Shown here piece by piece: positions 32,605 to 42,466 of a stretch of 64,000 bases of DNA. A model generated the notes under the pieces. That model was not told the origin of the DNA. It did not search any database and saw only the letters and a list, made by a program, of their open reading frames with translations. The position numbers were made by a program, and so were the translations under genes. Where the stretch lies: NCBI RefSeq assembly GCF_021568795.1, contig NZ_JAKGUE010000010.1, forward strand, positions 1-64,000. The letters run 5' to 3'. The stretch's first letter is position 1, and every line of letters begins with the position of its first letter. This DNA comes from Dethiosulfovibrio faecalis. GTDB lineage: Bacteria; Synergistota; Synergistia; Synergistales; Dethiosulfovibrionaceae.

Positions 32605-32627
32605 ATCACAAAATGAGATATTGTGAT
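32605..32627. promoter_or_regulatory. Dyad just upstream of the repressor gene
   Basis: ATCACAAAAT and ATATTGTGAT are 10-base arms (one mismatch) around GAG, ending 15 bases before the repressor start. Position suits autoregulation of the repressor. I could not place a good promoter for that gene; a CATAAT at 32553 lacks a clear -35. Confidence 0.45.
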
Positions 32628-32641
32628 TGGGGGTGGGGCAA

Positions 32642-33388
32642 ATGGGATATTCAGAGATGGAGAAAAAACTTATCAGAGGAGATCGATTGAAATTTTTAAG
32701 GGAAAAGTTAGATCTGTCTCAAGGGGAACTGGGAGAGCTTGCGGGGATAGCACAAAATCACATCAGCTCTATTGAAACTGGCAAAAGAGGAGCTTCTGAT
32801 AAAACTAAGAAAAGATTGGCCGAAGCACTCAAAACAAATGTTTCTTATCTCATTGGCGAAACCGACGATCCAGCCCCACAGGACAGCCCACCAGGCGATA
32901 CCTTCCCGTTCAAAAAACTATTCGAGCGGGAGGAATGGAGACAATTTCCAGTACTGGAACCAACCGTCGTCGCTTGTGCGGGATACGGGAATGGGGGGAT
33001 GACTACGATTTACGCCGACGCGGAGGAATTTATCCCTCTGCCAGCGTCCATGGTGGGGACCATCTCGGTAGATCCGGGGAAGTACCCTTTTGCGCTTCGT
33101 ATTGAAGGAGACAGTATGGAAGATGCGGGGATAGTCGACGGGTCGTATGTGCTTGTCAACCCGGCAGAGGAGGTGTACGACGGAGATCCAGCACTTGTTA
33201 TCTTTGGAAGGAACAGTAATTGCGCCGTAAAGTGGGTTTATTTTCACAACGACGGAGGCGTAGAGTTACGATCCGCTTCGTTGAAGTACCCTCCGAGGGC
33301 CTTTTCTGTTGAGGACATTGAGGAAGGGCTATTCCATATTGTTGGGAAAGTGGTTTGGACCGGAGGGAAGCCTCGATCAGGGGCGTAG
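32642..33388 (+). CDS. CI/LexA-type phage repressor (HTH plus S24 peptidase)
   Basis: 248 aa from the ATG at 32642. Residues about 15-65 are an XRE helix-turn-helix (LSQGELGELAGIAQNHISSI). The C-terminal S24 domain has the Ala-Gly cleavage site (CAGYGNGG, A113-G114), the Ser nucleophile (EGDSM, S158) and the Lys (AVKWV, K197). It should keep the prophage silent and cut itself on RecA activation. The gene faces away from the Cro-like gene, with three dyads between. Confidence 0.92.
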   Translation: MGYSEMEKKLIRGDRLKFLREKLDLSQGELGELAGIAQNHISSIETGKRGASDKTKKRLAEALKTNVSYLIGETDDPAPQDSPPGDTFPFKKLFEREEWRQFPVLEPTVVACAGYGNGGMTTIYADAEEFIPLPASMVGTISVDPGKYPFALRIEGDSMEDAGIVDGSYVLVNPAEEVYDGDPALVIFGRNSNCAVKWVYFHNDGGVELRSASLKYPPRAFSVEDIEEGLFHIVGKVVWTGGKPRSGA

Positions 33389-33427: not shown

Positions 33428-34435
33428 GTGATTAAGCTGTGGTTTTTTAAAAAGAAAAGACCAGAAACAGTTTCGATAGATTTTCCTGACTGGGAAAAAG
33501 AAAAAAACCGCAGAGACACAAAACTGGACAAGTTAAAAGCTAACTTCAAAGAAGCTCAGAATACACAAGAAGCCATTGATTCTATTCGAAAAGCGGTCTT
33601 CGATTTTATCGAAAACCATAACCAATCACCTGTAGAAATGATTTCCCTCTTTGACGATTTAGATCTACCTATAGACATCACAAAGAGAGAGCTCGCAATA
33701 CGAAAAGAAATCAATCGACATTATAAACAAAGAGAAAACTATAAAGAAAAGGCGTTCTCTATATATCTGTCCTTACAACATATCGAACTCCTCTACTCGA
33801 ACCCCGCCAGAGAATGGAGTAACTTCATGGGGCTCGGGAAACTACAAACAAATCTAAAATCACTGGAATACATGGATGCCTTGATTAAAATCATGTCAGA
33901 AGGGAAACGGCTTTTCTGCAATAATAAGATAAGCACCAAACTATCAAATGACATTCAAAAAATGTTTAAATTATGGAATTCGTTAAAAATAAAACGCGAA
34001 GAATATAGACTAAACTTAGGACTCATCCCCCAAGAAAGAGATCTCGCGAAAAAACATTTTTTGATCCTTCCTGTTGTTGAATATTTAGATCGTCGTTATA
34101 AGTTCAACCCCCAAGTTAGAGATGAACTTGTTCATTGGTGCAAAGAAGATATCCCCACATACGAGCAAGTGATAAAAGAAACCAACATTATAGATGATTT
34201 CTCTGAAAATGATTGTTACAGCTTGTTGGATAATCCAAGTCTTTCCGAGCAAAAACTACGCAATTTTTCGATTGAAGATGTAAAAAAAATGGATGATTTT
34301 TTCGTTCCTAATCTTCCTTCGTTTGATATTTTATGGGGAATTTACGAAGACGAGAAGAATAACGACGGGCTATCTATGCTAAAAAACATTGGAGAAAAAA
34401 TTGGCTACGAGGAAATATTGACAGAAGAAGAATAG
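33428..34435 (+). CDS. Cargo gene: hypothetical 335-aa protein
   Basis: The start is uncertain: a GTG at 33428 lies within AAGAAGGTG, and a CTG nine bases on has better spacing. The protein is highly charged, helical and Lys/Asn-rich; the DNA is A+T-rich compared with the phage. No domain, signal peptide or membrane segment is clear. It is the first gene after the repressor on the same strand, the usual place for lysogen-expressed cargo. No function is assigned. Confidence 0.6.
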   Translation: MIKLWFFKKKRPETVSIDFPDWEKEKNRRDTKLDKLKANFKEAQNTQEAIDSIRKAVFDFIENHNQSPVEMISLFDDLDLPIDITKRELAIRKEINRHYKQRENYKEKAFSIYLSLQHIELLYSNPAREWSNFMGLGKLQTNLKSLEYMDALIKIMSEGKRLFCNNKISTKLSNDIQKMFKLWNSLKIKREEYRLNLGLIPQERDLAKKHFLILPVVEYLDRRYKFNPQVRDELVHWCKEDIPTYEQVIKETNIIDDFSENDCYSLLDNPSLSEQKLRNFSIEDVKKMDDFFVPNLPSFDILWGIYEDEKNNDGLSMLKNIGEKIGYEEILTEEE

Positions 34436-34489
34436 GTGGAACAGCATCGCCAGGGGTGGCGGTTTAGTAGGGAACAATAGGGGCAGGAG

Positions 34490-35245
34490 ATGAGTCTCAT
34501 GTTCATGTTATGGACTGCAATTTTTATTGTTTCTATGATAGCTATCCCAGTAGGGGCAATTATTGCCAAGAGATACATACAAAGCAAGCTACAGGAGTCT
34601 AAGAGGGCGCCGCTCAAAACCTATCAAGTATCTGAAAACATCAGTGTTCCAGAACTACTCCACATCGTCTATAAGGTCCGAGAGGCAAAAATAATCTCAG
34701 GCAAAAAATGCAAAGAGATCTCCCATATGATCACCAAAGAAGGGGCTACACCAGAAACCAGGGACTTGGTCCGCCAAATCCTTTATGGGAGAGATGATCA
34801 GGTCTCCTCTGGAGAGCTTCTTGGAAAAGAGCATATTTCTGTAGGAAGCAAAAGCGACTGGGCAATCGTGGCTGTGCTCATCCCACTCATGATAGCCGTG
34901 TCTTTTGCAACAGCAGACAAGCCCCAACCAGTCCAGGTGGAGCCTTCGGCAAGGGAGCAGCATAAGAAGCCATCCGTTCCCCAAAAAGACATAGGAGATG
35001 AAATAGGAGCCTTCATATGGTCTAAAACTTTCGTCAAAGACTACTTAAAAGCTCCATCTACTGCGGACTTTCCTTTCTTTGATAGAGAATCAACACAATT
35101 AAACGACTCCACTTGGGTAATAAAATCTTATGTCGACAGTCAAAACAGCTTCGGAGCAATAATCAGAACGCGCTATATCGCAACAATGCATTACAAAGGT
35201 AACGATCACTGGGAGCTGTTAGACATTCACTTTGTAGATCAATAA
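34490..35245 (+). CDS. Cargo gene: membrane protein with C-terminal globular domain
   Basis: 251 aa. A membrane helix is at about 4-26 and another at about 122-142 (WAIVAVLIPLMIAVSFA), with a charged segment between them. The C-terminal 85 residues form a globular domain (FVKDYLKAPSTADFPFFDRE, ending HWELLDIHFVDQ) seen on membrane proteins of unknown role. A+T-rich. It could be a superinfection-exclusion or defence accessory protein, but nothing in the sequence proves that. Confidence 0.6.
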   Translation: MSLMFMLWTAIFIVSMIAIPVGAIIAKRYIQSKLQESKRAPLKTYQVSENISVPELLHIVYKVREAKIISGKKCKEISHMITKEGATPETRDLVRQILYGRDDQVSSGELLGKEHISVGSKSDWAIVAVLIPLMIAVSFATADKPQPVQVEPSAREQHKKPSVPQKDIGDEIGAFIWSKTFVKDYLKAPSTADFPFFDRESTQLNDSTWVIKSYVDSQNSFGAIIRTRYIATMHYKGNDHWELLDIHFVDQ

Positions 35246-35358
35246 TTTTGGATATTAACCTCAGAACCACTTCACGCCTCTTCCTCTAAGGCGTCCTTCG
35301 AGAAGAGGAAAGTGTCAGCTTGGATGAGACAGAAAGTAGATCGGAGGAGAGGTAGGCA

Positions 35359-36060
35359 ATGGGATACGAAGAAACCGTGGAAGGGATACTCGACAGCTAC
35401 TCTAAAAAGAAAGACAAGAAATGGTTCTGTAACTGCAAATGCGAAGATCAGTGGATTTCTGTAGAGGAGAAAAATGAGGGCTACGAGCTTACACCCAATG
35501 ATAGACCAAGCCAGGAATCCGATGATCCGTGCTTCATCCTAATCCTCGAGTCGCCACACAGGAGAGAGTTTAAAACTTACGATAAAAAAAATAAAAAGCT
35601 TAAGACACTTAAGACACCCAAGCCAGCCAATGGGAAAACAGGCCGTAACATACAAGATCACTTCATAGATAGCATGGCAATACAAATGGATGGCAAGAAA
35701 AAATGCTACATATACCTACTCAATGCTATCCAATACCAATGCTCACTAGGACTAACACAAAACCAAGAGAACAAAAAAATAAAACTTGATATTTTTAATA
35801 AAACATGGGGAAATGAGGGAATGGAGAATTTTAAAGAAAGACTAAAAGGCGTATATGGTACCATCCCCGACAACAGACCTACATATATCGTAAATGCTTG
35901 CACTAATTTAGGCAAACTAAAAGAAGACATAACAACAAGAGCTAGTGAAGTTACAGAGAAAAAAATCTTTCAAAGGTGCCACCCTTCTTCGGGTTACTTT
36001 ATTGTAGAAGCTAGGGCCTATCGTCAGGCATTGAATGAACTTAGGCCCGCCTATGACTAA
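35359..36060 (+). CDS. Cargo gene: possible uracil-DNA-glycosylase-like protein
   Basis: 233 aa, A+T-rich, with GGAGGAGAGG before the ATG. After a Cys-containing start (WFCNCKCEDQW) there is CFILILESPHRREF, then a long charged insert, a segment YIVNACTNLGKL, and CHPSSGYF near the end. A strand ending in a Ser-Pro-His loop together with a late His-Pro-Ser loop is reminiscent of the two active-site loops of uracil-DNA glycosylases. This is a weak analogy and no function is established. The 113 bases before it hold a CTTCCTCT/AGAGGAAAG hairpin but no gene. Confidence 0.5.
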   Translation: MGYEETVEGILDSYSKKKDKKWFCNCKCEDQWISVEEKNEGYELTPNDRPSQESDDPCFILILESPHRREFKTYDKKNKKLKTLKTPKPANGKTGRNIQDHFIDSMAIQMDGKKKCYIYLLNAIQYQCSLGLTQNQENKKIKLDIFNKTWGNEGMENFKERLKGVYGTIPDNRPTYIVNACTNLGKLKEDITTRASEVTEKKIFQRCHPSSGYFIVEARAYRQALNELRPAYD

Positions 36061-37132
36061 ACTCCATTCAACCCTATTCGCCATCCTAGCATCTATCCTC
36101 CTTCTCGCCACCCCCTCCTTCGCTCTCTCTATCGGCACTTTCAACATAGAGTACTTCAACGTCTCCGGGAAGAAGGCCTATTCCCCCACCGACTGCGCCG
36201 CTCTGGCGAAGACAATCCGGGGATCCGGTGCCGACGTCCTCGCTCTTCAGGAGATCGAGGGCAACACCACCATGAGGTACTTCGTCACCAAGTTCATGCC
36301 GGGATGGGCTTACGCCGGAAATGATACGGGAGGCAGGCAGGATCTCTACTTCCTTTGGAACAAGAAGGTGATCAAACTCCTGGACGGTCCGCATGTTTAC
36401 GGTGCCAACGCATCCTTCCGCTTCGAAGGCAAGAGTTACAAGCTGAACGACCGACCGAACCTGGTGGCCACGTTCCTGGATACCTGGGACAACACCCGCT
36501 TTACCCTGGTGAACGTCCACCTGAAGAGCCAGAGTACCAGAGGGAAGGACGACAAGGCCACAGCCCAGAGATACAACGACACCAAGAGACGAACCCAGAT
36601 CGAAGGGATAAACAAGCTGGTCTCGTCGCTGAAGGGCCCCGTGTTCGTCCTTGGGGACTATAACACCGACTCCCCCACCGGAACTGCCTTTCCTCTCGTC
36701 GGGCTCCACAGCGGCCATTACAGCTACGATAACCGAAAAAGCAACCTGGACTATATCGGCTATATGGGCATCCAAAAGACGGGCTCCTGGAAGCTCTACG
36801 AGGTGGAGAGCTCCATAGCCTCCAGATCCACCAGAAGATCTCAGTATCCCGACCACGATATAGTCGTCCTGTCGTTGGACGGCGACGGCCCCCATGCCGT
36901 ATCGGGTGGCATAGCGGCCCCTCAGGTAGTCAAGCAGAAGAAGGTAATAGCCTCGGACTCGCCTAATGATTCGGGAGCTTCGGGAGACACGATTGTCTAT
37001 ATCACCAAGACGGGAAAGAAGTACCATGCGGATGGATGTTCATACCTAAAGAAGAGCAAGATACCGATCACGCTGAAGGAAGCGAAGGCCAAGGGATATA
37101 CGCCATGCTCCAAGTGCCATCCGCCGAAATAA
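36053..37132 (+). CDS. Secreted endonuclease/exonuclease/phosphatase-family nuclease
   Basis: 359 aa from the ATG at 36053, which overlaps the upstream stop. A signal peptide (MTKLHSTLFAILASILLLAT and on, cleaved after SFA) is followed by an EEP domain: GTFNIEYF, LALQEIEG, RPNLVATF, LVNVHLKSQ, VLGDYNTD and PDHDIVVLSL. The C-terminal 45 residues have KKYHADGCSYLKKSKIPI and PCSKCHPPK, a small Cys/His domain found on exported nucleases. Its base composition is richer in G+C than its neighbours, so it likely came separately. It would cut DNA or phospho-esters outside the cytoplasm. Confidence 0.82.
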   Translation: MTKLHSTLFAILASILLLATPSFALSIGTFNIEYFNVSGKKAYSPTDCAALAKTIRGSGADVLALQEIEGNTTMRYFVTKFMPGWAYAGNDTGGRQDLYFLWNKKVIKLLDGPHVYGANASFRFEGKSYKLNDRPNLVATFLDTWDNTRFTLVNVHLKSQSTRGKDDKATAQRYNDTKRRTQIEGINKLVSSLKGPVFVLGDYNTDSPTGTAFPLVGLHSGHYSYDNRKSNLDYIGYMGIQKTGSWKLYEVESSIASRSTRRSQYPDHDIVVLSLDGDGPHAVSGGIAAPQVVKQKKVIASDSPNDSGASGDTIVYITKTGKKYHADGCSYLKKSKIPITLKEAKAKGYTPCSKCHPPK

Positions 37133-37232
37133 GGATAAAGGAACTGAAGGCTTCCGCCGTGCGCACCGGTGACTGGGGGAGCGGGGGGGAGTAGTATAAA
37201 CTTTTGATTTTACATAAAGGGGCTCGTACGCA

Positions 37233-37670
37233 ATGCAGACAAGCAATATTATTTCAACCGTTGCTTTGGTCATGTCAGGAATATCCTTATATTTTTCCTA
37301 TCGGTCATATAAACTAAATAACGAAAAGGAACTTAGAATCCTAGCGTCATCTCAAAAAGCAAATATACGCGGGGAAATAATATCAGAATATTCACAATCG
37401 GGTTCAAAAAATTACAAGGCCCTGATTTGGAATGACGGGAAAGCTACTGCAAGAGAAATAACCGTCGACGATATAAAAGAAAAGGGAAGTCTCCTAACCC
37501 AAAAGGAAATCAATGATGCCTTCCCAGTAGAGAGCCTCGAACCTGATGGACAGGTTCGCATGCCAGTATGTGTTTTTTTAGGATCAACACTAAAACAAAA
37601 AATCACGATAAGATGGTCTGATGATTTTAAAGAAAAAAACGAAAAAAACATATACCTGCGAGTGCAATAA
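37233..37670 (+). CDS. Cargo gene: membrane-anchored protein paired with SLATT gene
   Basis: 145 aa. One N-terminal membrane helix (about 5-27, STVALVMSGISLYFSYRSYK) then a beta-rich globular domain of about 110 residues (YKALIWNDGKATAREITVDD) on the far side or in the cytoplasm. A+T-rich. The SLATT gene starts 22 bases after its stop, so the two form one transcript. The family is not known to me; a partner or regulator of the SLATT protein is a reasonable guess. Confidence 0.6.
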   Translation: MQTSNIISTVALVMSGISLYFSYRSYKLNNEKELRILASSQKANIRGEIISEYSQSGSKNYKALIWNDGKATAREITVDDIKEKGSLLTQKEINDAFPVESLEPDGQVRMPVCVFLGSTLKQKITIRWSDDFKEKNEKNIYLRVQ

Positions 37671-37692
37671 CCAGGGGAAGAGGGAAATACTC

Positions 37693-38226
37693 ATGGGAAA
37701 AAAGACGCCTAAAAAAGAACACGCAAATCCAAGGGTTTTATCTCGTACTATCATTAGAGAAGAGGTCCCTAGATTGACTCAAAAGGAATACATCCACGAA
37801 CGCTTGAAAGATCAAATAAACTGGTATGGCTCCAAAAGCGAGTGGAACAAAAAGTGGTACGTAAGACTGAAAAAATGCGAGCTTGCCATGGCCGCAACTA
37901 TCCCTGTGATAGTCTCGTTCATGGATGGGCCGCTGTGTCTAAAGCTCATCATAGCTATTCTCGGAGCATGTCTCGTCGGGATAGGCGGACTTCACGGGCT
38001 CCAGAACTACCACGAAAACTGGATAGAGTACAGGAGTACCAGCGAGGTATTAAAGCATGAGCTTTACTTTTATCAAACGAAGACAGGACCGTATAAAGAC
38101 GAAGATGACCCCTTCCCCCTGTTGGTGCACAGGACGGAAGAGATCATCTCTCACGAGAATATCAACTGGAACAACCTATGCGGACAATCAAAAAAAGAGG
38201 GGAAGAGCCCTACGATGGGCCGTTGA
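37693..38226 (+). CDS. SLATT/DUF4231 membrane protein (candidate pore effector)
   Basis: 177 aa from the ATG at 37693, with GAGGG eight bases upstream. It shows the DUF4231 pattern: YIHERLKDQINWYGSKSEWN, NKKWYVRLKK, a first membrane helix (ELAMAATIPVIVSFM), a second (LKLIIAILGACLVGIGGLHG), and NWIEYRSTSEVLKHELYFY with TKTGPY after it. SLATT proteins have been predicted to be membrane effectors that respond to nucleotide signals in conflict systems. A TIR gene lies 240 bases downstream. The 3' end overlaps the convergent gene by 17 bases. Confidence 0.82.
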   Translation: MGKKTPKKEHANPRVLSRTIIREEVPRLTQKEYIHERLKDQINWYGSKSEWNKKWYVRLKKCELAMAATIPVIVSFMDGPLCLKLIIAILGACLVGIGGLHGLQNYHENWIEYRSTSEVLKHELYFYQTKTGPYKDEDDPFPLLVHRTEEIISHENINWNNLCGQSKKEGKSPTMGR

Positions 38227-38413
38227 CTTCTCGATAAGACCTGACAAAAACATCTGGTTTACAGGGGTACTGCTCCCCTCGTAAGCCGGTGATAATCCAG
38301 TCCCCAATGGAGGCGTGAAGTGGTCCTTCTAGGGTGTCTATGACCATCTCTTTGTCGGTTTGATAAGCCCTTATTCGTACCGGTAGTTTTTCGAACCAAC
38401 GCATTTCCTGCAT
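38210..38413 (-). CDS. Small common phage protein within cargo region
   Basis: 67 aa from the ATG at 38413 (seven bases after GAGGT). The body (RIRAYQTDKEMVIDTLEGPL and GDWIITGLRGEQYPCKPDVF) matches a widespread phage protein that usually ends with this GDWI..G..GE.YPCKPDIF pattern. Function unknown. It is convergent with the SLATT gene and divergent from the TIR gene, so it separates the two. Confidence 0.7.
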   Translation of the reverse strand: MQEMRWFEKLPVRIRAYQTDKEMVIDTLEGPLHASIGDWIITGLRGEQYPCKPDVFVRSYREVNGPS

Positions 38414-38464
38414 TTCAAACACCTCTATTCGATTCGATCTTAAAAAACGAAAGGAGCTACAGCA

Positions 38465-38887
38465 ATGCCAAGTTTGCGCAATTATAACATCTTCATCAGT
38501 CATGCTTGGAGATATTCTGAGCGCTACGAAAAGCTGTCTAACATGCTGAACGAAGCCAAATATCTAAGGACAATCGACTATTCGGTCCCACAGTGGAAGC
38601 CAGTTATAGACCCAGAACACCCCTGTAATAAATCCGATCTAAAAAATGCGCTGACAGAGCAAATAAGTCACGCCAGCGTAGTAATCGTCATAGCGGGGAT
38701 GTGGGCCAGTTACAGCGAGTGGATACAGTACGAAATAGACGAGGCCCAACGTATGTGGAAACCAATACTCGGCATAAAACCCCGGGGACAAGAGCGTATT
38801 CCGAGCGCCATCACCCAAAACGCCGATGAAATGGTCGGTTGGAACACCGAAACAATAGTCAACGCCATCCGGCGGTTAGCAAGATAG
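38465..38887 (+). CDS. TIR-like protein of the ThsB (MTH538/DUF1863) type
   Basis: 140 aa, a lone domain. It starts with beta strand NIFISHAWRYS, then LKNALTEQISHASVVIVIAG and WIQYEIDEAQRMWKPILGIK, and ends NADEMVGWNTETIVNAIRRL. This is the domain used by Thoeris ThsB proteins, which sense phage and make a cyclic ADP-ribose-type signal. A Glu in SEWIQYE (E85 or E90) is the likely catalytic residue. AAAGGAG lies eight bases before the ATG. No ThsA (SIR2/SLOG or macro) gene is nearby; the SLATT gene is the only effector-like candidate. Confidence 0.85.
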   Translation: MPSLRNYNIFISHAWRYSERYEKLSNMLNEAKYLRTIDYSVPQWKPVIDPEHPCNKSDLKNALTEQISHASVVIVIAGMWASYSEWIQYEIDEAQRMWKPILGIKPRGQERIPSAITQNADEMVGWNTETIVNAIRRLAR

Positions 38888-38890
38888 CAC

Positions 38891-38919
38891 AAAGGGCCAG
38901 AGCATCCAGCTCCGGCCCT
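38891..38919. terminator. Hairpin between convergent TIR and NYN genes
   Basis: AAGGGCC and GAGC pair with GCTC and GGCCCTT, followed on the plus strand by TAAATTATTT. It lies where the TIR and NYN genes face each other and could end both transcripts. Confidence 0.55.
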
Positions 38920-38939
38920 TAAATTATTTACTAATTTAT

Positions 38940-39614
38940 TCATACCCATGAGGATGGACAAGAAAAAGTGGACCCTGCTACAGAAAAGACCTTTGGGAAA
39001 AGAGCTTTTTTTAAATGTTGTTCTTTTATTCGCATATGCCTGAACTTATTTCCAACACAAACCTTTTCTAAATGTTTGGCTCGTGCCCCGGGAGGAAAAA
39101 GAACTGATATTTCCACGGCAGGTTTCAATGTCTTTATGGCTTGCAGCGCTGGCACAAAATCGTTATCTCCGCTGATCAAAAAGACAGAATCACACTCGTC
39201 GTTTATACAGGCCTTGAGCATATCAATCGCTATATTGACATCAGTTAATTTTTCTTCATAAGTGACAAAACTCTTGTTGCAAAGTCCATTTTTTTTACCT
39301 TGAGAACAGGTAGCTTGACAAGGAACCCTACTCCTCTTGGTTTTTTTTAAAAAAGATCCCAATATAACCTTAACTCCAGTTGCCTTCAGAAGATTAATAT
39401 ATACCTTGTGACGGTCCATCTTCCCTTGATCCCATTTTGCATAAGCTGAAAAATAGTGGACTTCTTTTAAATCTTCGGTCTTATTCAAGAACTGAGTAGA
39501 AAGATTAGTTAGGTTAAGCCATTTGTAGCAAGAGGAGGACCCATTTCTTGCTACAAGGGTATTTATTGAGTGATACAAATTGAATCCGTCGACAAAAGTA
39601 ATCACTCTACGCAT
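38940..39614 (-). CDS. NYN-domain (PIN-like) ribonuclease
   Basis: 224 aa from the ATG at 39614 (MRRVITFVDGFNLYHS), eight bases after TAGGAGGG. The three acidic blocks of NYN/LabA-type RNases are present: FVDGFNLYH, TDVNIAIDML and LISGDNDFVPAL. A Cys-rich insert (CQATCSQGKKNGLC) may bind zinc. NYN RNases occur in toxin and defence settings. The gene is A+T-rich, lies between TIR and integrase, and its leader has a promoter, two hairpins and a T run that meets the ribosome binding site. Confidence 0.85.
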   Translation of the reverse strand: MRRVITFVDGFNLYHSINTLVARNGSSSCYKWLNLTNLSTQFLNKTEDLKEVHYFSAYAKWDQGKMDRHKVYINLLKATGVKVILGSFLKKTKRSRVPCQATCSQGKKNGLCNKSFVTYEEKLTDVNIAIDMLKACINDECDSVFLISGDNDFVPALQAIKTLKPAVEISVLFPPGARAKHLEKVCVGNKFRHMRIKEQHLKKALFPKVFSVAGSTFSCPSSWV

Positions 39615-39629
39615 CAAACACGCCCTCCT

Positions 39630-39659
39630 AAAAAAAATCCCGTAGCCTCGGCTACGGGA
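39630..39659 (-). terminator. Terminator/attenuator abutting the NYN ribosome binding site
   Basis: On the minus strand CCCGTAGCC, GA, GGCTACGGG are followed by ATTTTTTTT, which runs straight into AGGAGGG of the NYN gene. It can end integrase transcripts and would also stop transcripts from the promoter at 39705 unless it is bypassed. Confidence 0.8.
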
Positions 39660-39661
39660 GG

Positions 39662-39689
39662 CCATGCTGGTCAAGAAGAACCAACATGG
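39662..39689 (-). promoter_or_regulatory. Leader hairpin upstream of the attenuator
   Basis: CCATGTTGGT pairs with ACCAGCATGG (one G-U pair), giving a 10-base stem just before the terminator hairpin. The two stems together form a structured leader of about 70 nt. Confidence 0.55.
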
Positions 39690-39704
39690 GGCTTATTTGC
39701 TTAT

Positions 39705-39732
39705 ATTATACATAGCTTCCCCGTTTACGCAA
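39705..39732 (-). promoter_or_regulatory. Promoter of NYN leader RNA
   Basis: TATAAT (39705-39710) is a perfect -10, with TTGCGT (39727-39732) 16 bases upstream as -35. The start would be near 39698, so the RNA passes through both hairpins before reaching the NYN gene. The promoter overlaps the integrase 3' end region. Confidence 0.65.
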
Positions 39733-39736
39733 CCCC

Positions 39737-40864
39737 CTAGAATCTCACCCCATCCAACCAATCCGCCCACCACTGCATCATCTCCCTGCGCTTGTCCAGG
39801 TATTCGGCGTGGTTGTAGGCCGCACGCACCGTATTCTTCTCCACGTGGGCCAGCTGCCTTTCGATCACGTCCGGCGGCCATCCGTTTTCGTTTAGGATGG
39901 TGCTGGCCATGGCCCTGAAACCGTGGCCGGTAACTTCTTTTTTTTCGTATCCCATGCGTCTAAGAGCGGCGTTTACGGTTCCGTCGCTCATAGGACGCTC
40001 AGACGTGCGTATGGACGGAAAGACATACTTACCCCCTCCGGAGAAAAGACGGACCCTCTCCAGCGAATCTACCGCCTGTAATGACAACGGTACGAGATGG
40101 GAGCGACGCATCTTCATCTTTTCCGCAGGAATCCGCCACAGATCTCCGTCGATCTCGGACCACTCCATCTTTCTAAGCTCTCCCGGACGAACGAAGGTAT
40201 ATATACCGACAAGGAGTGCATGGCGCACCACAACGGACGAGAGATCCCCAACCGCCCTGACAAGTCCTCTTATTCCCTGCGGGTCTATTATGGCCGCCCT
40301 GTGAGTTACCTGTGGTGGCATCAAGGCTCCTCGGAGGTCGGCTGAGATATCTCGATCGCACCGACCGGTGGCCACACCGTAGCGCATCACCTGCCCGACA
40401 AGCTGGTGGACCCTGTGCGCCGTTTCGTGCAGCCCTTCTGCCTCGATCTTCCGTAGTACGGTAAGCAACGCCGGAGCAGAGATGGACCGTACATCGTTGC
40501 CGCCGATATAGGGAAACAGAAAAGTATCCATCCGGTACGAGAGATCCCTGATGTATTTGGGAACGCAGGTGGGCTTTTTTCTTTTCTCCAGCCATTCCTC
40601 GGCAAGGTCCTTGAAGGTGACCGTACCACCGGCAAGAGGACCGGAAGACTTTATATCGTCCCTAAGCTGCCTGGCTTGTGCAAGGCTCACGGCTGGGTAT
40701 TCGCCCAGGGATTTCTTTTTCTCCTTGCCGTCCTCCCAGCATCGCAATCGCCAGAATCTGCGCCCAGAGGGCCTTATCTCGATGTAGAGCCCTCTCTCGT
40801 CTTTGATCATGTACGGTTTTTCCTTTACCTTGGCTTTTCGTATGGCCGCATCGGTTAACGCCAT
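39737..40864 (-). CDS. Phage tyrosine integrase (P4 type)
   Basis: 375 aa. The N-terminal 100 residues are the DUF4102 DNA-binding arm (ALTDAAIRKAKVKEKPYMIK). The catalytic domain has R226 (TFVRPGELRKMEW), H314-x-x-R317 (GHGFRAMAST), H340 (QLAHVEKN) and Y350 (AYNHAEY). It recombines phage and host att sites. It sits next to tRNA-Gln, and four repeats between them look like arm-type sites. Confidence 0.95.
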   Translation of the reverse strand: MALTDAAIRKAKVKEKPYMIKDERGLYIEIRPSGRRFWRLRCWEDGKEKKKSLGEYPAVSLAQARQLRDDIKSSGPLAGGTVTFKDLAEEWLEKRKKPTCVPKYIRDLSYRMDTFLFPYIGGNDVRSISAPALLTVLRKIEAEGLHETAHRVHQLVGQVMRYGVATGRCDRDISADLRGALMPPQVTHRAAIIDPQGIRGLVRAVGDLSSVVVRHALLVGIYTFVRPGELRKMEWSEIDGDLWRIPAEKMKMRRSHLVPLSLQAVDSLERVRLFSGGGKYVFPSIRTSERPMSDGTVNAALRRMGYEKKEVTGHGFRAMASTILNENGWPPDVIERQLAHVEKNTVRAAYNHAEYLDKRREMMQWWADWLDGVRF

Positions 40865-41058: not shown

Positions 41059-41100
41059 TGGCTGCCCCGCCTGGATTCGAACCAGGATCGACGGAACCAA
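41059..41100. other. Probable prophage attachment site in tRNA 3' half
   Basis: Phage genes end and host genes begin here, and the integrase is next to the tRNA 3' end. P4-type integrases use tRNA 3' ends. The exact core cannot be fixed because the other prophage end is outside the window. Confidence 0.5.
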
Positions 41101-41132
41101 AATCCGTTGTGCTGCCTTTGCACCACGGGGCA
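41059..41132 (-). tRNA. tRNA-Gln (UUG)
   Basis: 74 bases including an encoded CCA. The acceptor TGCCCCG pairs with CGGGGCA. The anticodon stem ACGGA/TCCGT holds a TTTTGGT loop with anticodon TTG. The T arm contains GGTTCGAATCC. Its 3' end faces the prophage integrase, the usual orientation for a tRNA attachment site. Confidence 0.95.
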
Positions 41133-41170: not shown

Positions 41171-42466
41171 CTAAATTTCCACCGTCTCTCTCATCTTCTC
41201 TATCTCCTCGATCAGAGGAGCCTCCACGTCGGACTTCAAATCGAGTTTTACAAGTCGACCATCTCTCACTACCTGGGAGGCTCCTACGAAAAGATGAACC
41301 GTATTTCCGTCTCTATCGTCCACCCTGAAATCGCATAGACGGCCCGGCCTGAGAGGTCCGATCTTTCTATCTCCGAAGGCAAAGGCCCCCTTCCCGATCT
41401 CATCGATCACGGGACGTGAGACAACCCCATCGTATCGATTCCTAAGGAAGGATCTCTCTTTCTCCAACGACAGATCGTCGTTGCTGGCCTCTCCATCGGT
41501 TCCGAGAAACAGGGGAATAGAGGAATCGACCAGGCCTGGAAGGTCGGGAAAACCGACTCCCACTCTATCGTTCATCCTGGGATTCAATACTGCGGAAAGC
41601 CCTCTATCGGCCATCAAGGCCCTCTCCGTTTCGTCCACCCAACAACAATCGGACACAATCATTTTATCCAGACCAGGGACCTTGCCGGAACTCACCAGAG
41701 AATCCAGGAACTCAACAGGACGACATCCGTAATTATTTAGAGATATGTCGACATCTCCCTTGTCCTCCGATAGGTGAAACTGAACGGGACGATCCAACTC
41801 GTAGCCGATACGAAGGGCGGTCACGATAGCGTCCTCGGTGGAACCGTGCATGCTGTGAATTGCCGGTGCGACCACGACATCGGATCCCTCAAGCTCCATA
41901 AGCTCCCTGAGAGATCTCTCTCCGTCCTCAACGGTCTCGTAATACCCCTCTTGGGACCTTCTCTTTCCCTCATAGGCACCCTTGGAAATAACATCGTAGG
42001 TCATCCTGCCGAAGATAAGCCTGATCCCGACGTCCCTTGCCGCCGCTATGACTTCTCTATCGTACAGGTTTCCCCTGCCGTTATGCAGGTAAAAGGAGGC
42101 CATGACCGTAGACGTACCATAAAGGGCCATTCTGGAAAAAGCCCTTCGGCATGCCAGTCGAACCTGCCTGGGCGTGAGAAAGGGACTGTAACGGTAGATG
42201 GTGTTACGACACCAGGTTCCCAGATCCCAGGTGGGATCGACCATATCGACATATATGGACTGTTCCGGATGAGAGTGAGCGTTGAACTGTCCCTGCCGAA
42301 TCACGGCATCGGACTGAAAGACCCTTACTGGCACCGACCCGGAAACGGTCAACTCTCCCCATCCTACCGCCTCTATCCTGTCTCCATTGGCCAATACGTA
42401 GCCACGATCGATACGTCCATCAAGCTCTAGAGAACCTACAAAAAGTCGTCTATTGTTCAAAATCAT
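41171..42466 (-). CDS. Amidohydrolase (ATZ/TRZ, SsnA-like)
   Basis: 431 aa from the ATG at 42466 (MILNNRRLFVG), which has GGAGATGGGGG upstream; longer frames start inside the Ppx gene. The TIM-barrel metal motifs are present: NAHSHPE (HxH), AIHSMHG, QFHLSEDKGD and LGTDGEASNDD. The family deaminates or hydrolyses purine-like or triazine-type substrates with one metal ion. The substrate cannot be told here. It is last in the leftward Ppk1-CHAD-Ppx run. Confidence 0.85.
   Translation of the reverse strand: MILNNRRLFVGSLELDGRIDRGYVLANGDRIEAVGWGELTVSGSVPVRVFQSDAVIRQGQFNAHSHPEQSIYVDMVDPTWDLGTWCRNTIYRYSPFLTPRQVRLACRRAFSRMALYGTSTVMASFYLHNGRGNLYDREVIAAARDVGIRLIFGRMTYDVISKGAYEGKRRSQEGYYETVEDGERSLRELMELEGSDVVVAPAIHSMHGSTEDAIVTALRIGYELDRPVQFHLSEDKGDVDISLNNYGCRPVEFLDSLVSSGKVPGLDKMIVSDCCWVDETERALMADRGLSAVLNPRMNDRVGVGFPDLPGLVDSSIPLFLGTDGEASNDDLSLEKERSFLRNRYDGVVSRPVIDEIGKGAFAFGDRKIGPLRPGRLCDFRVDDRDGNTVHLFVGASQVVRDGRLVKLDLKSDVEAPLIEEIEKMRETVEI

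What the first reader, a model, noticed from the sequence alone, without database searches (positions are those of the whole stretch)
37233..38887. Phage-borne TIR plus SLATT pair: candidate Thoeris-like system without ThsA
Seen: a ThsB-type TIR protein (38465-38887) and a DUF4231/SLATT two-helix membrane protein (37693-38226) in the A+T-rich cargo block between repressor and integrase. No SIR2, SLOG, macro or caspase effector is nearby. Known: ThsB TIR proteins make cyclic ADP-ribose-type signals, and SLATT proteins have been predicted as nucleotide-activated membrane effectors. Inference: here SLATT replaces ThsA, so infection would lead to membrane damage. The two genes are separated by a convergent small phage gene, so joint function is not certain.
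Basis: partly seen in the sequence, partly recalled or inferred. Interest (0 to 1): 0.75.

Follow-up and report, generated by a model that had tools for sequence, protein, structure and literature searches.

The report
Prophage TIR–SLATT defence cassette, three genes
A virus dormant in a bacterial chromosome carries a recurrent set of three genes, an infection-sensing TIR enzyme, a membrane protein it probably switches on, and a small viral protein that accompanies the pair in other viruses, which looks like a built-in defence against rival viruses.

Summary
In detail: a SLATT/DUF4231 protein (37693-38226) and a ThsB-type TIR (38465-38887) lie in a prophage between repressor and integrase. The pair recurs. 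Of 34 viral loci found by SLATT alone, 34 have a ThsB-type TIR within 1 kb and none further out; of 54 bacterial/archaeal loci, 22 do. The window's split order (SLATT, small gene on the other strand, TIR) is found in 20 of 81 SLATT clusters, the window's included. Near-identical SLATTs pair with two TIR classes. I read it as Thoeris-like: TIR makes an ADP-ribose signal, SLATT permeabilises the membrane; no step is shown biochemically. TIR+SLATT in Firmicutes phages is already published as a prediction (Iyer 2022). Not found in print: the third gene. The small "phage gene" thought to separate the pair is in 34/34 viral and 17/22 genome TIR-SLATT loci and antisense in all 93 loci that have it. 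Among its 80 closest viral relatives it lies near an integrase in 24/32 with the pair, 2/48 without. I propose a prophage-side inhibitor. The genome has no SIR2_2 domain; the SLOG search was uninformative. Real; new variant of a known kind.

The parts
37693..38226 (+). SLATT_1/DUF4231 two-helix membrane protein, proposed effector
   Evidence: NF033634 119.6 bits, PF14015 3e-21; hydropathy marks residues 64-105 as membrane; AlphaFold2 mean pLDDT 90.8, helices 30-74, 81-104, 106-128, 140-168; R37, Q41, Y113, R114, E118, L120, Y134, E149, E155, W159 invariant in 62 aligned sequences
38210..38413 (-). small phage protein (67 aa, phrog_419), regular third member of the phage cassettes, antisense to SLATT and TIR; proposed inhibitor
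   Evidence: phrog_419 1.9e-16; 43-52% identical to the gene beside SLATT in 8 Firmicutes phage or plasmid loci; AlphaFold2 mean pLDDT 92.9, five strands and a helix
38465..38887 (+). ThsB-type TIR protein, proposed sensor and signal-making NAD+ enzyme
   Evidence: PF08937 3e-14, PADLOC ThsB 7.5e-19, WxxxE motif intact
37233..37670 (+). 145-aa protein (phrog_6723) 22 bp upstream of SLATT, possibly co-transcribed; no recurrence with SLATT found
   Evidence: not among the neighbour families shown for 54 cassette clusters
39737..40864 (-). tyrosine integrase of the prophage
   Evidence: PF00589 6e-25, PF22022 2e-29
41059..41132 (-). tRNA-Gln beside the integrase, likely attachment site (inference)
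   Evidence: an attachment repeat was not found, the other prophage end lies off the contig
32627..33388 (+). repressor-like protein (HTH plus LexA-type C terminus, by eye)
   Evidence: ORF; assigned from the sequence, no family search run on it

Best explanation
A prophage-borne, Thoeris-like abortive-infection cassette. The ThsB-type TIR detects an incoming phage and makes an ADP-ribose-type signal from NAD+; the SLATT protein binds that signal through its conserved cytosolic helices, assembles and permeabilises the membrane, so the infected cell stops before the rival phage spreads. The small antisense gene belongs to the phage form of the system; my leading guess is that it restrains TIR or SLATT during the carrier prophage's own lytic cycle. 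Shown here by comparison: domain identity, intact TIR motif, recurrent linkage, exchange of TIR classes on one SLATT, constancy of the small gene in phage loci. Inferred: signal, ligand, pore, protection, inhibition.
For: Linkage: 34/34 viral SLATT loci have TIR within 1 kb and none beyond; 22/54 genome loci, with 2 TIR places beyond. Several gene orders and TIR classes: of 81 SLATT clusters at 90% identity, 20 SLATT>small<TIR> (window among them), 15 and 11 SLATT>TIR>small<, 1 TIR>SLATT>small<, 3 TIR>SLATT>, 4 SLATT>TIR> without small, 27 without TIR; 17 arrangement changes on the SLATT tree. TIR exchange: the SLATTs of Javan235 and Javan199 share 128/142 residues, their TIRs only 24/72 in the best local match. 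TIRs of the window's class stand directly before SLATT in contigs of Archaeoglobus, a Bathymodiolus symbiont and Candidatus Thiobius, and beside SLATT_3-SLATT_1 proteins in 4 of 8 plasmid regions opened. The TIRs scanned from five classes or loci (window, L050, Staphylococcus X2, Javan235, Natronomonas) match ThsB_TIR PF08937 over its cut-off. In known Thoeris types the TIR's nucleotide activates an effector of the same operon (passage in PMC12847820).
Against: 31 of 53 scored genome SLATT loci have no TIR within 1 kb by my HMMs, so SLATT also works in other settings; in 17 of these loci I scanned one or two neighbours, and 3 have a more distant TIR_2 protein next to SLATT or two genes away (L167, L172, L198). 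In the window, TIR and SLATT are on one strand but not one operon; in 3 of the 4 plasmid cases they are on opposite strands. The window's TIR class also pairs with caspases, so TIR class does not fix the effector. SLATT has no sequence match in the PDB and no clear fold match, so no ligand site can be read off. No activity was measured.
Confidence: 0.72

Rival explanations
1. The TIR acts alone by draining NAD+, and SLATT is a separate defence or stress gene that happens to sit near it.
For: Some TIRs defend by NAD+ depletion (recalled); SLATT occurs without TIR in 31 of 53 scored genome loci; on three of four plasmids the two genes are on opposite strands.
Against: TIR is concentrated within 1 kb of SLATT; overlapping reading frames in both orders, SLATT-TIR in Staphylococcus phage X2 and TIR-SLATT in an Archaeoglobus contig; exchange of TIR on a near-constant SLATT.
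Confidence: 0.1
2. The small gene has no role in the system: it is a common phage gene carried along at the same spot.
For: The family is common in phages: 768 of 50,697 phage records hold a match, and 48 of the 80 best viral small-gene loci lack SLATT. On a 65-column tree the SLATT-linked copies are clustered (16 changes against a shuffled mean of 33) but not shown to be one clade.
Against: Present in 34/34 viral and 17/22 genome TIR-SLATT loci picked by SLATT alone, in hosts of many genera. Among the 80 best small-gene loci it lies within 3 kb of an integrase in 24 of 32 with the pair and 2 of 48 without (that HMM was built from integrases of cassette phages); the Pfam check agrees: PF00589 in 22 of 62 long ORFs within 3 kb with the pair, 3 of 107 without, where terminase, portal, helicase and methylase genes lead.
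Confidence: 0.35
3. The small gene product is the trigger or a needed subunit of the system rather than its inhibitor.
For: Constant presence in phage cassettes; related proteins are widespread in phages, which would suit a sensed phage protein.
Against: Seven TIR-SLATT loci, none with a detected integrase, lack it, so it is not needed everywhere; as an antisense gene in the lytic direction it would set off the system in its own carrier (inference).
Confidence: 0.15
4. The partner of this TIR is another nearby gene (the NYN/HEC-09 protein or the 145-aa protein), not SLATT.
For: The NYN gene 38940-39674 is a candidate defence gene (HEC-09, 1.7e-45) and lies next to the TIR.
Against: My single-sequence HMMs of both proteins hit none of the viral loci, and neither is among the neighbour families shown for 54 cassette clusters.
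Confidence: 0.05

Closest known systems
TIR + 2TM SLATT gene neighbourhood of Firmicutes phages (Iyer et al. 2022, PMC9503650; passages read)
   Same: TIR beside SLATT in temperate phages (Javan281, SN10 named there); predicted ADP-ribose-controlled membrane effector; limitation of superinfection suggested
   Different: The passages I read name an HTH factor or a zincin-like peptidase as occasional neighbours, but not a conserved small antisense gene, the split order seen here, exchange of TIR classes or the plasmid and archaeal cases; figures are not held, so Figure 5g could show more
GTPase-centred conflict systems with SLATT (eLife 2020, PMC7159879; passages read)
   Same: A SLATT gene occurs on several occasions with nucleotide-related effectors, the TIR domain among those named; SLATT predicted as a nucleotide-responsive pore
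   Different: Large multi-gene GTPase systems, not a small phage cassette
Type II Thoeris (TM-macro ThsA; PMC11204291 passages; PMC12847820 passage)
   Same: TIR product activates a membrane effector that perturbs the membrane
   Different: ThsA there has a macro domain that binds the nucleotide; here a SLATT protein without a macro domain match
Type IV Thoeris (TIR plus caspase-like protease, N7-cADPR; passage in PMC12847820)
   Same: The window's TIR class includes TIRs directly before caspases in Thiolapillus (40.9% identity) and Salmonella (40-41%); that these two are type IV is my inference
   Different: No caspase Pfam match among the ten ORFs scanned around the window TIR
Phage sponge proteins Acb4, Tad1, Tad2 (PMC11722364, abstract and passages)
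   Same: Phage proteins of immune evasion; the proposed role of the small gene would be like theirs
   Different: Acb4 is Pfam PF13876; the small gene matches phrog_419 and, weakly in the phage X2 copy, PF14083, with no clear PDB fold match

Membership tests
Thoeris | ThsB-type TIR with intact NADase glutamate | tested here: met
   PF08937 over cut-off; W86 and E90 invariant in 23
Thoeris | ThsA effector with SIR2-SLOG, TM-macro or caspase domain next to the TIR | tested here: not met
   No such Pfam domain in the ten ORFs scanned from 33428 to 40864; SIR2_2 absent from the genome; the STALD search rang nowhere, controls included, so uninformative
Thoeris | TIR makes a nucleotide signal that activates the partner | not testable with these tools
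   Needs biochemistry
Thoeris | Protection against phage | not testable with these tools
   Needs phage challenge
Phage TIR-SLATT neighbourhood (Iyer 2022) | SLATT and TIR neighbours in a temperate phage | tested here: met
   recurrence in 34 of 34 viral SLATT loci
CBASS-type or other SLATT systems | Nucleotidyltransferase (SMODS) or SLOG partner nearby | tested here: not met
   No such Pfam match among the ten ORFs scanned from 33428 to 40864
Acb4 sponge family (PF13876), for the small gene | PF13876 match | tested here: not met
   No PF13876 match at E 0.01 for the window or phage X2 small protein
PGDYG family (PF14083), for the small gene | Match over the curated cut-off of 27 bits | tested here: not met
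   Phage X2 copy 25.7 bits, window copy none at E 0.01; 15.7 bits with the longer ORF

The most novel reading that the evidence does not exclude
Phage TIR-SLATT is a three-gene module in which the antisense small barrel protein is a lytic-phase self-exemption factor (a signal sponge or direct TIR/SLATT inhibitor), so that the prophage can carry a suicide system without being killed by it on induction; the same family in other phages would then be an unrecognised counter-defence against TIR systems.
Probability: 0.27. Interest if true: 0.85.

Novelty: new variant of a known kind. Interest (0 to 1): 0.63.

Why it matters
Staphylococcal Thoeris is set off by prophage induction as well as by infection (PMC12578639, passages), so a prophage that carries a TIR suicide system may need a way to spare itself; a conserved antisense phage gene is a direct candidate. 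Near-identical SLATTs with two TIR classes give a natural test of whether different TIRs make the same signal. If SLATT is the receptor, it would be a further Thoeris-like effector class and give a ligand to an orphan membrane family. PADLOC 2.0.0 returned no match for this SLATT or for the small gene's ORF, so of the ten proteins scanned it would list only the TIR and the NYN gene.

Tried and rejected
Rejected: the small gene as an unrelated phage gene that splits the pair. The small gene as an Acb4 homologue: PF13876 not matched. A recurrent partner for the small gene outside SLATT loci: the largest shared neighbour family is in 4 of 48 loci. The 145-aa upstream protein and the NYN gene as regular members: no hit of their single-sequence HMMs in viral loci, not among the families shown. 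Attachment repeat for the prophage: only one 18-base repeat, at 41193 and 29233, which does not look like one. Consensus promoters: none in 37000-39700, where shuffles give 4.5 on average.

Led nowhere: PDB searches with SLATT (by sequence, by fold) and with the small protein (best Foldseek E 0.34, best VIA Z 2.9) gave no clear match, which does not show that the folds are new. A single-protein SLATT scan of viral contigs found none; a single-protein TIR scan found one locus (L037), in which my HMMs see no SLATT and no small gene. The small-gene tree is unresolved. The organism was not identified.

Limits of the counts: TIR detection used HMMs that I built from one to four proteins per class (plus one HMM of all of them together), so the TIR-negative loci are an upper bound. 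The scans demand a conserved peptide pattern. Several contigs appear twice, once from each viral scan, and phage records may recur among the viral contigs; the 99 loci are not de-duplicated. Tables that include loci fetched by the small gene are biased towards it; figures from SLATT-fetched loci alone are 34/34 and 17/22. The integrase HMM came from six cassette-bearing loci, window included; I therefore ran a Pfam check, which agrees. L217 (SLATT fragment with small gene, no TIR seen) was dropped from the cassette tables, hence 53 of 54. L047 counts as SLATT-TIR although its TIR ORF is a 47-aa fragment; the TIRs of L051 (same contig as L102) and L097 are broken into frames or pieces yet count as present.

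What 'type III' Thoeris contains could not be established: one paper names it without describing its effector (passage). If it is a SLATT-type effector, the novelty falls to 'new member of a known kind'.

Full report
What is there. The window holds a prophage that runs from the contig start (window position 1) to an integrase at 39737-40864 and a tRNA-Gln at 41059-41132. The long ORFs from 31998 down to 1 lie mostly on the minus strand; the repressor-like ORF and the cargo block lie on the plus strand. In that block are a SLATT_1/DUF4231 protein (37693-38226) and a ThsB-type TIR protein (38465-38887). Between them, on the minus strand, is a 67-aa gene (38210-38413). All three have ribosome-site-like sequences before their starts, read directly from the sequence. 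The genome holds one PF08937 and one SLATT_1 match, both here. None of the six searched relatives of the same genus has PF08937, and no other of the 149 genomes searched has SLATT_1 over its cut-off, so the cassette most likely came with the prophage.

Is the pair more than chance? I searched viral contigs with a SLATT alignment only. 34 loci came back; all 34 have a TIR gene within 1 kb of SLATT and none has one further out, in 378,535 bases. The same kind of search of bacterial and archaeal genomes gave 54 loci; 22 have TIR within 1 kb, against 2 TIR places in the remaining 728,561 bases. With TIR places spread evenly these outcomes have probabilities near 1e-28 and 4e-18 (related loci are not independent, so these are rough). 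The TIRs I scanned (window, L050, phage X2, Javan235, Natronomonas, and L193 and L201) match ThsB_TIR PF08937 over its cut-off. Against this, 31 of 53 scored genome loci have SLATT without TIR by my HMMs. In 17 of these I scanned one or two neighbours; 3 have a more distant TIR_2 protein next door or two genes away, the other 14 gave no TIR among the neighbours scanned.

Arrangements. The commonest is SLATT>TIR>small< with a Staphylococcus-type or a Streptococcus-type TIR; the window's is SLATT>small<TIR>; one locus has TIR>SLATT>small<. After clustering SLATTs at 90% identity there are 81 clusters: 15, 11, 20 (window among them) and 1 of these, 7 with TIR but no small gene and 27 without TIR. 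The window SLATT belongs with four others of its own arrangement (support 97). The tree needs 17 changes of arrangement. The clearest case of exchange is Streptococcus phage Javan235 against Javan199: SLATT 128 of 142 residues identical, TIR 24 of 72 in the best local match. An effector that stays while its TIR is exchanged suggests that the classes make a compatible signal or that SLATT accepts several; this is inference.

The TIR side. The window's class also occurs directly before SLATT in contigs of Archaeoglobus, a Bathymodiolus symbiont and Candidatus Thiobius. I opened 8 plasmid regions with this TIR class, chosen from 60 listed of 106 records. Four have a DUF4231 protein beside the TIR (Rhizobium, Enterobacter, Vibrio, E. 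coli); these are SLATT_3-SLATT_1 proteins, the second domain cut short in Vibrio; the gene is on the TIR's strand in Rhizobium and on the opposite strand in the other three. One has a caspase (Thiolapillus). Synechococcus and Natronorubrum have a short protein, membrane-like by eye, overlapping the TIR, with no NCBIfam match. The Helicobacter one is unclear. A Salmonella relative, from the phage collection, is followed by a caspase. So one TIR class serves several effector kinds.

The third gene. Among loci chosen by SLATT alone it is present in 34 of 34 viral and 17 of 22 genome TIR-SLATT loci. It is antisense to SLATT and TIR in all 93 loci that have it, window included. In 8 annotated records with a repressor or repressor-like regulator nearby, the small gene is on the opposite strand to that regulator, and in 6 of them it shares the strand of the annotated antirepressor or excisionase; in the window too it shares the strand of most long phage ORFs. 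That is the lytic direction. In SLATT-fetched TIR-SLATT loci an integrase is seen in 42 of 51 with the small gene and 0 of 5 without; in all 99 loci other than the window, duplicates included, 74 of 92 against 0 of 7; on clusters 33 of 47 against 0 of 7, Fisher p 0.0007. The last two tables include loci fetched by the small gene.

Is it only a common phage gene? The family is common: 768 of 50,697 phage records. A scan by the small gene kept the best 80 of at least 567 viral loci; 32 have SLATT and the same 32 have TIR. Within those 80 it lies within 3 kb of an integrase in 24 of the 32 with the pair and 2 of the 48 without, although the latter loci are longer (median 11,092 against 8,305 bases). 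Because that integrase HMM came from cassette phages, I repeated the test with Pfam: of long ORFs (250 aa or more) within 3 kb, PF00589 Phage_integrase matches 22 of 62 with the pair and 3 of 107 without; without the pair the neighbours are terminase, portal, helicase, methylase and the like. So this gene family sits in the integration region mainly when the pair is there. Against a special role: its 65-column tree does not set the SLATT-linked copies apart as one clade. The model is a confident five-strand fold with one helix, with no clear solved match.

Mechanism. I propose: TIR senses infection, makes an ADP-ribose-type signal, SLATT opens the membrane. SLATT's predicted helices are 30-74, 81-104, 106-128 and 140-168; the membrane part is about residues 64-105, and the ten residues invariant in 62 sequences all lie outside it, which suits a cytosolic sensing part and a membrane hairpin. 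For the small gene I propose restraint of the system during the carrier's own lytic cycle. Staphylococcal Thoeris is set off by prophage induction through the major head protein (PMC12578639, passages), so self-triggering is a plausible problem for a prophage with such a system. Nothing here shows inhibition.

Known or new. TIR plus SLATT in Firmicutes phages, and its reading as a membrane effector that could limit superinfection, is in Iyer et al. 2022 (PMC9503650, passages read); SLATT in the company of TIR and other effectors is also in an eLife 2020 paper (PMC7159879, passages). Searches for DUF4231 with TIR (0 papers), SLATT with Thoeris (4 papers, passages of two read), SLATT with 'TIR domain' and phage (6 papers, passages of three read), TIR with 2TM and SLATT (2 papers, passages of both read), and TIR-SLATT, PGDYG, DUF4231 and related words (10 papers, listing seen, only PMC9503650 read) showed me no experiment on the pair and no mention of the small gene with it. 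The library lacks many subscription papers, and I did not read the type IV Thoeris paper, which I know only through a passage in PMC12847820. I therefore call it a new variant of a known kind: the membership test for Thoeris as published fails on the effector, while the working resemblance is strong.

Noticed in passing
window 38940-39674 (-): NYN-domain protein matching PADLOC candidate defence model HEC-09 (1.7e-45), between the TIR and the integrase; NYN relatives also occur in Chlorobiaceae SLATT loci L181, L196, L198, L202.
   Followed up: partly
window 36035-37132 (+): Endonuclease/exonuclease/phosphatase-fold protein (PF03372 over cut-off; ExeM/NucH-like match below cut-off) in the prophage cargo block, with a signal-peptide-like start and a cysteine-containing tail by eye; an ORF next to SLATT in L051 matches its HMM.
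   Followed up: partly
window 33428-36060 (+): Three cargo ORFs of 335, 251 and 233 aa without a significant Pfam, PADLOC or NCBIfam match.
   Followed up: no
L172 7277-9991 and L167 8324-9940: Directly upstream of SLATT: one protein with caspase, methyltransferase and TIR_2 domains, and one with STAND NTPase and TIR_2.
   Followed up: no
L220 2911-3429 and L219 2889-3500: Short protein, membrane-like by eye, overlapping the end of a window-class TIR gene in a Synechococcus and a haloarchaeal plasmid; no NCBIfam match; possibly another effector kind.
   Followed up: partly
L218, L223, L225: Protein annotated TRAFs-binding (TPR-S by Pfam in L225) next to the TIR-SLATT pair on Rhizobium, Vibrio and E. 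coli plasmids; L223 and L225 carry a second TIR gene.
   Followed up: no
L047 3983-5844: Haloarchaeal SLATT with only a 47-aa TIR remnant, next to a SAVED-domain gene, with type III-A CRISPR genes further on.
   Followed up: no
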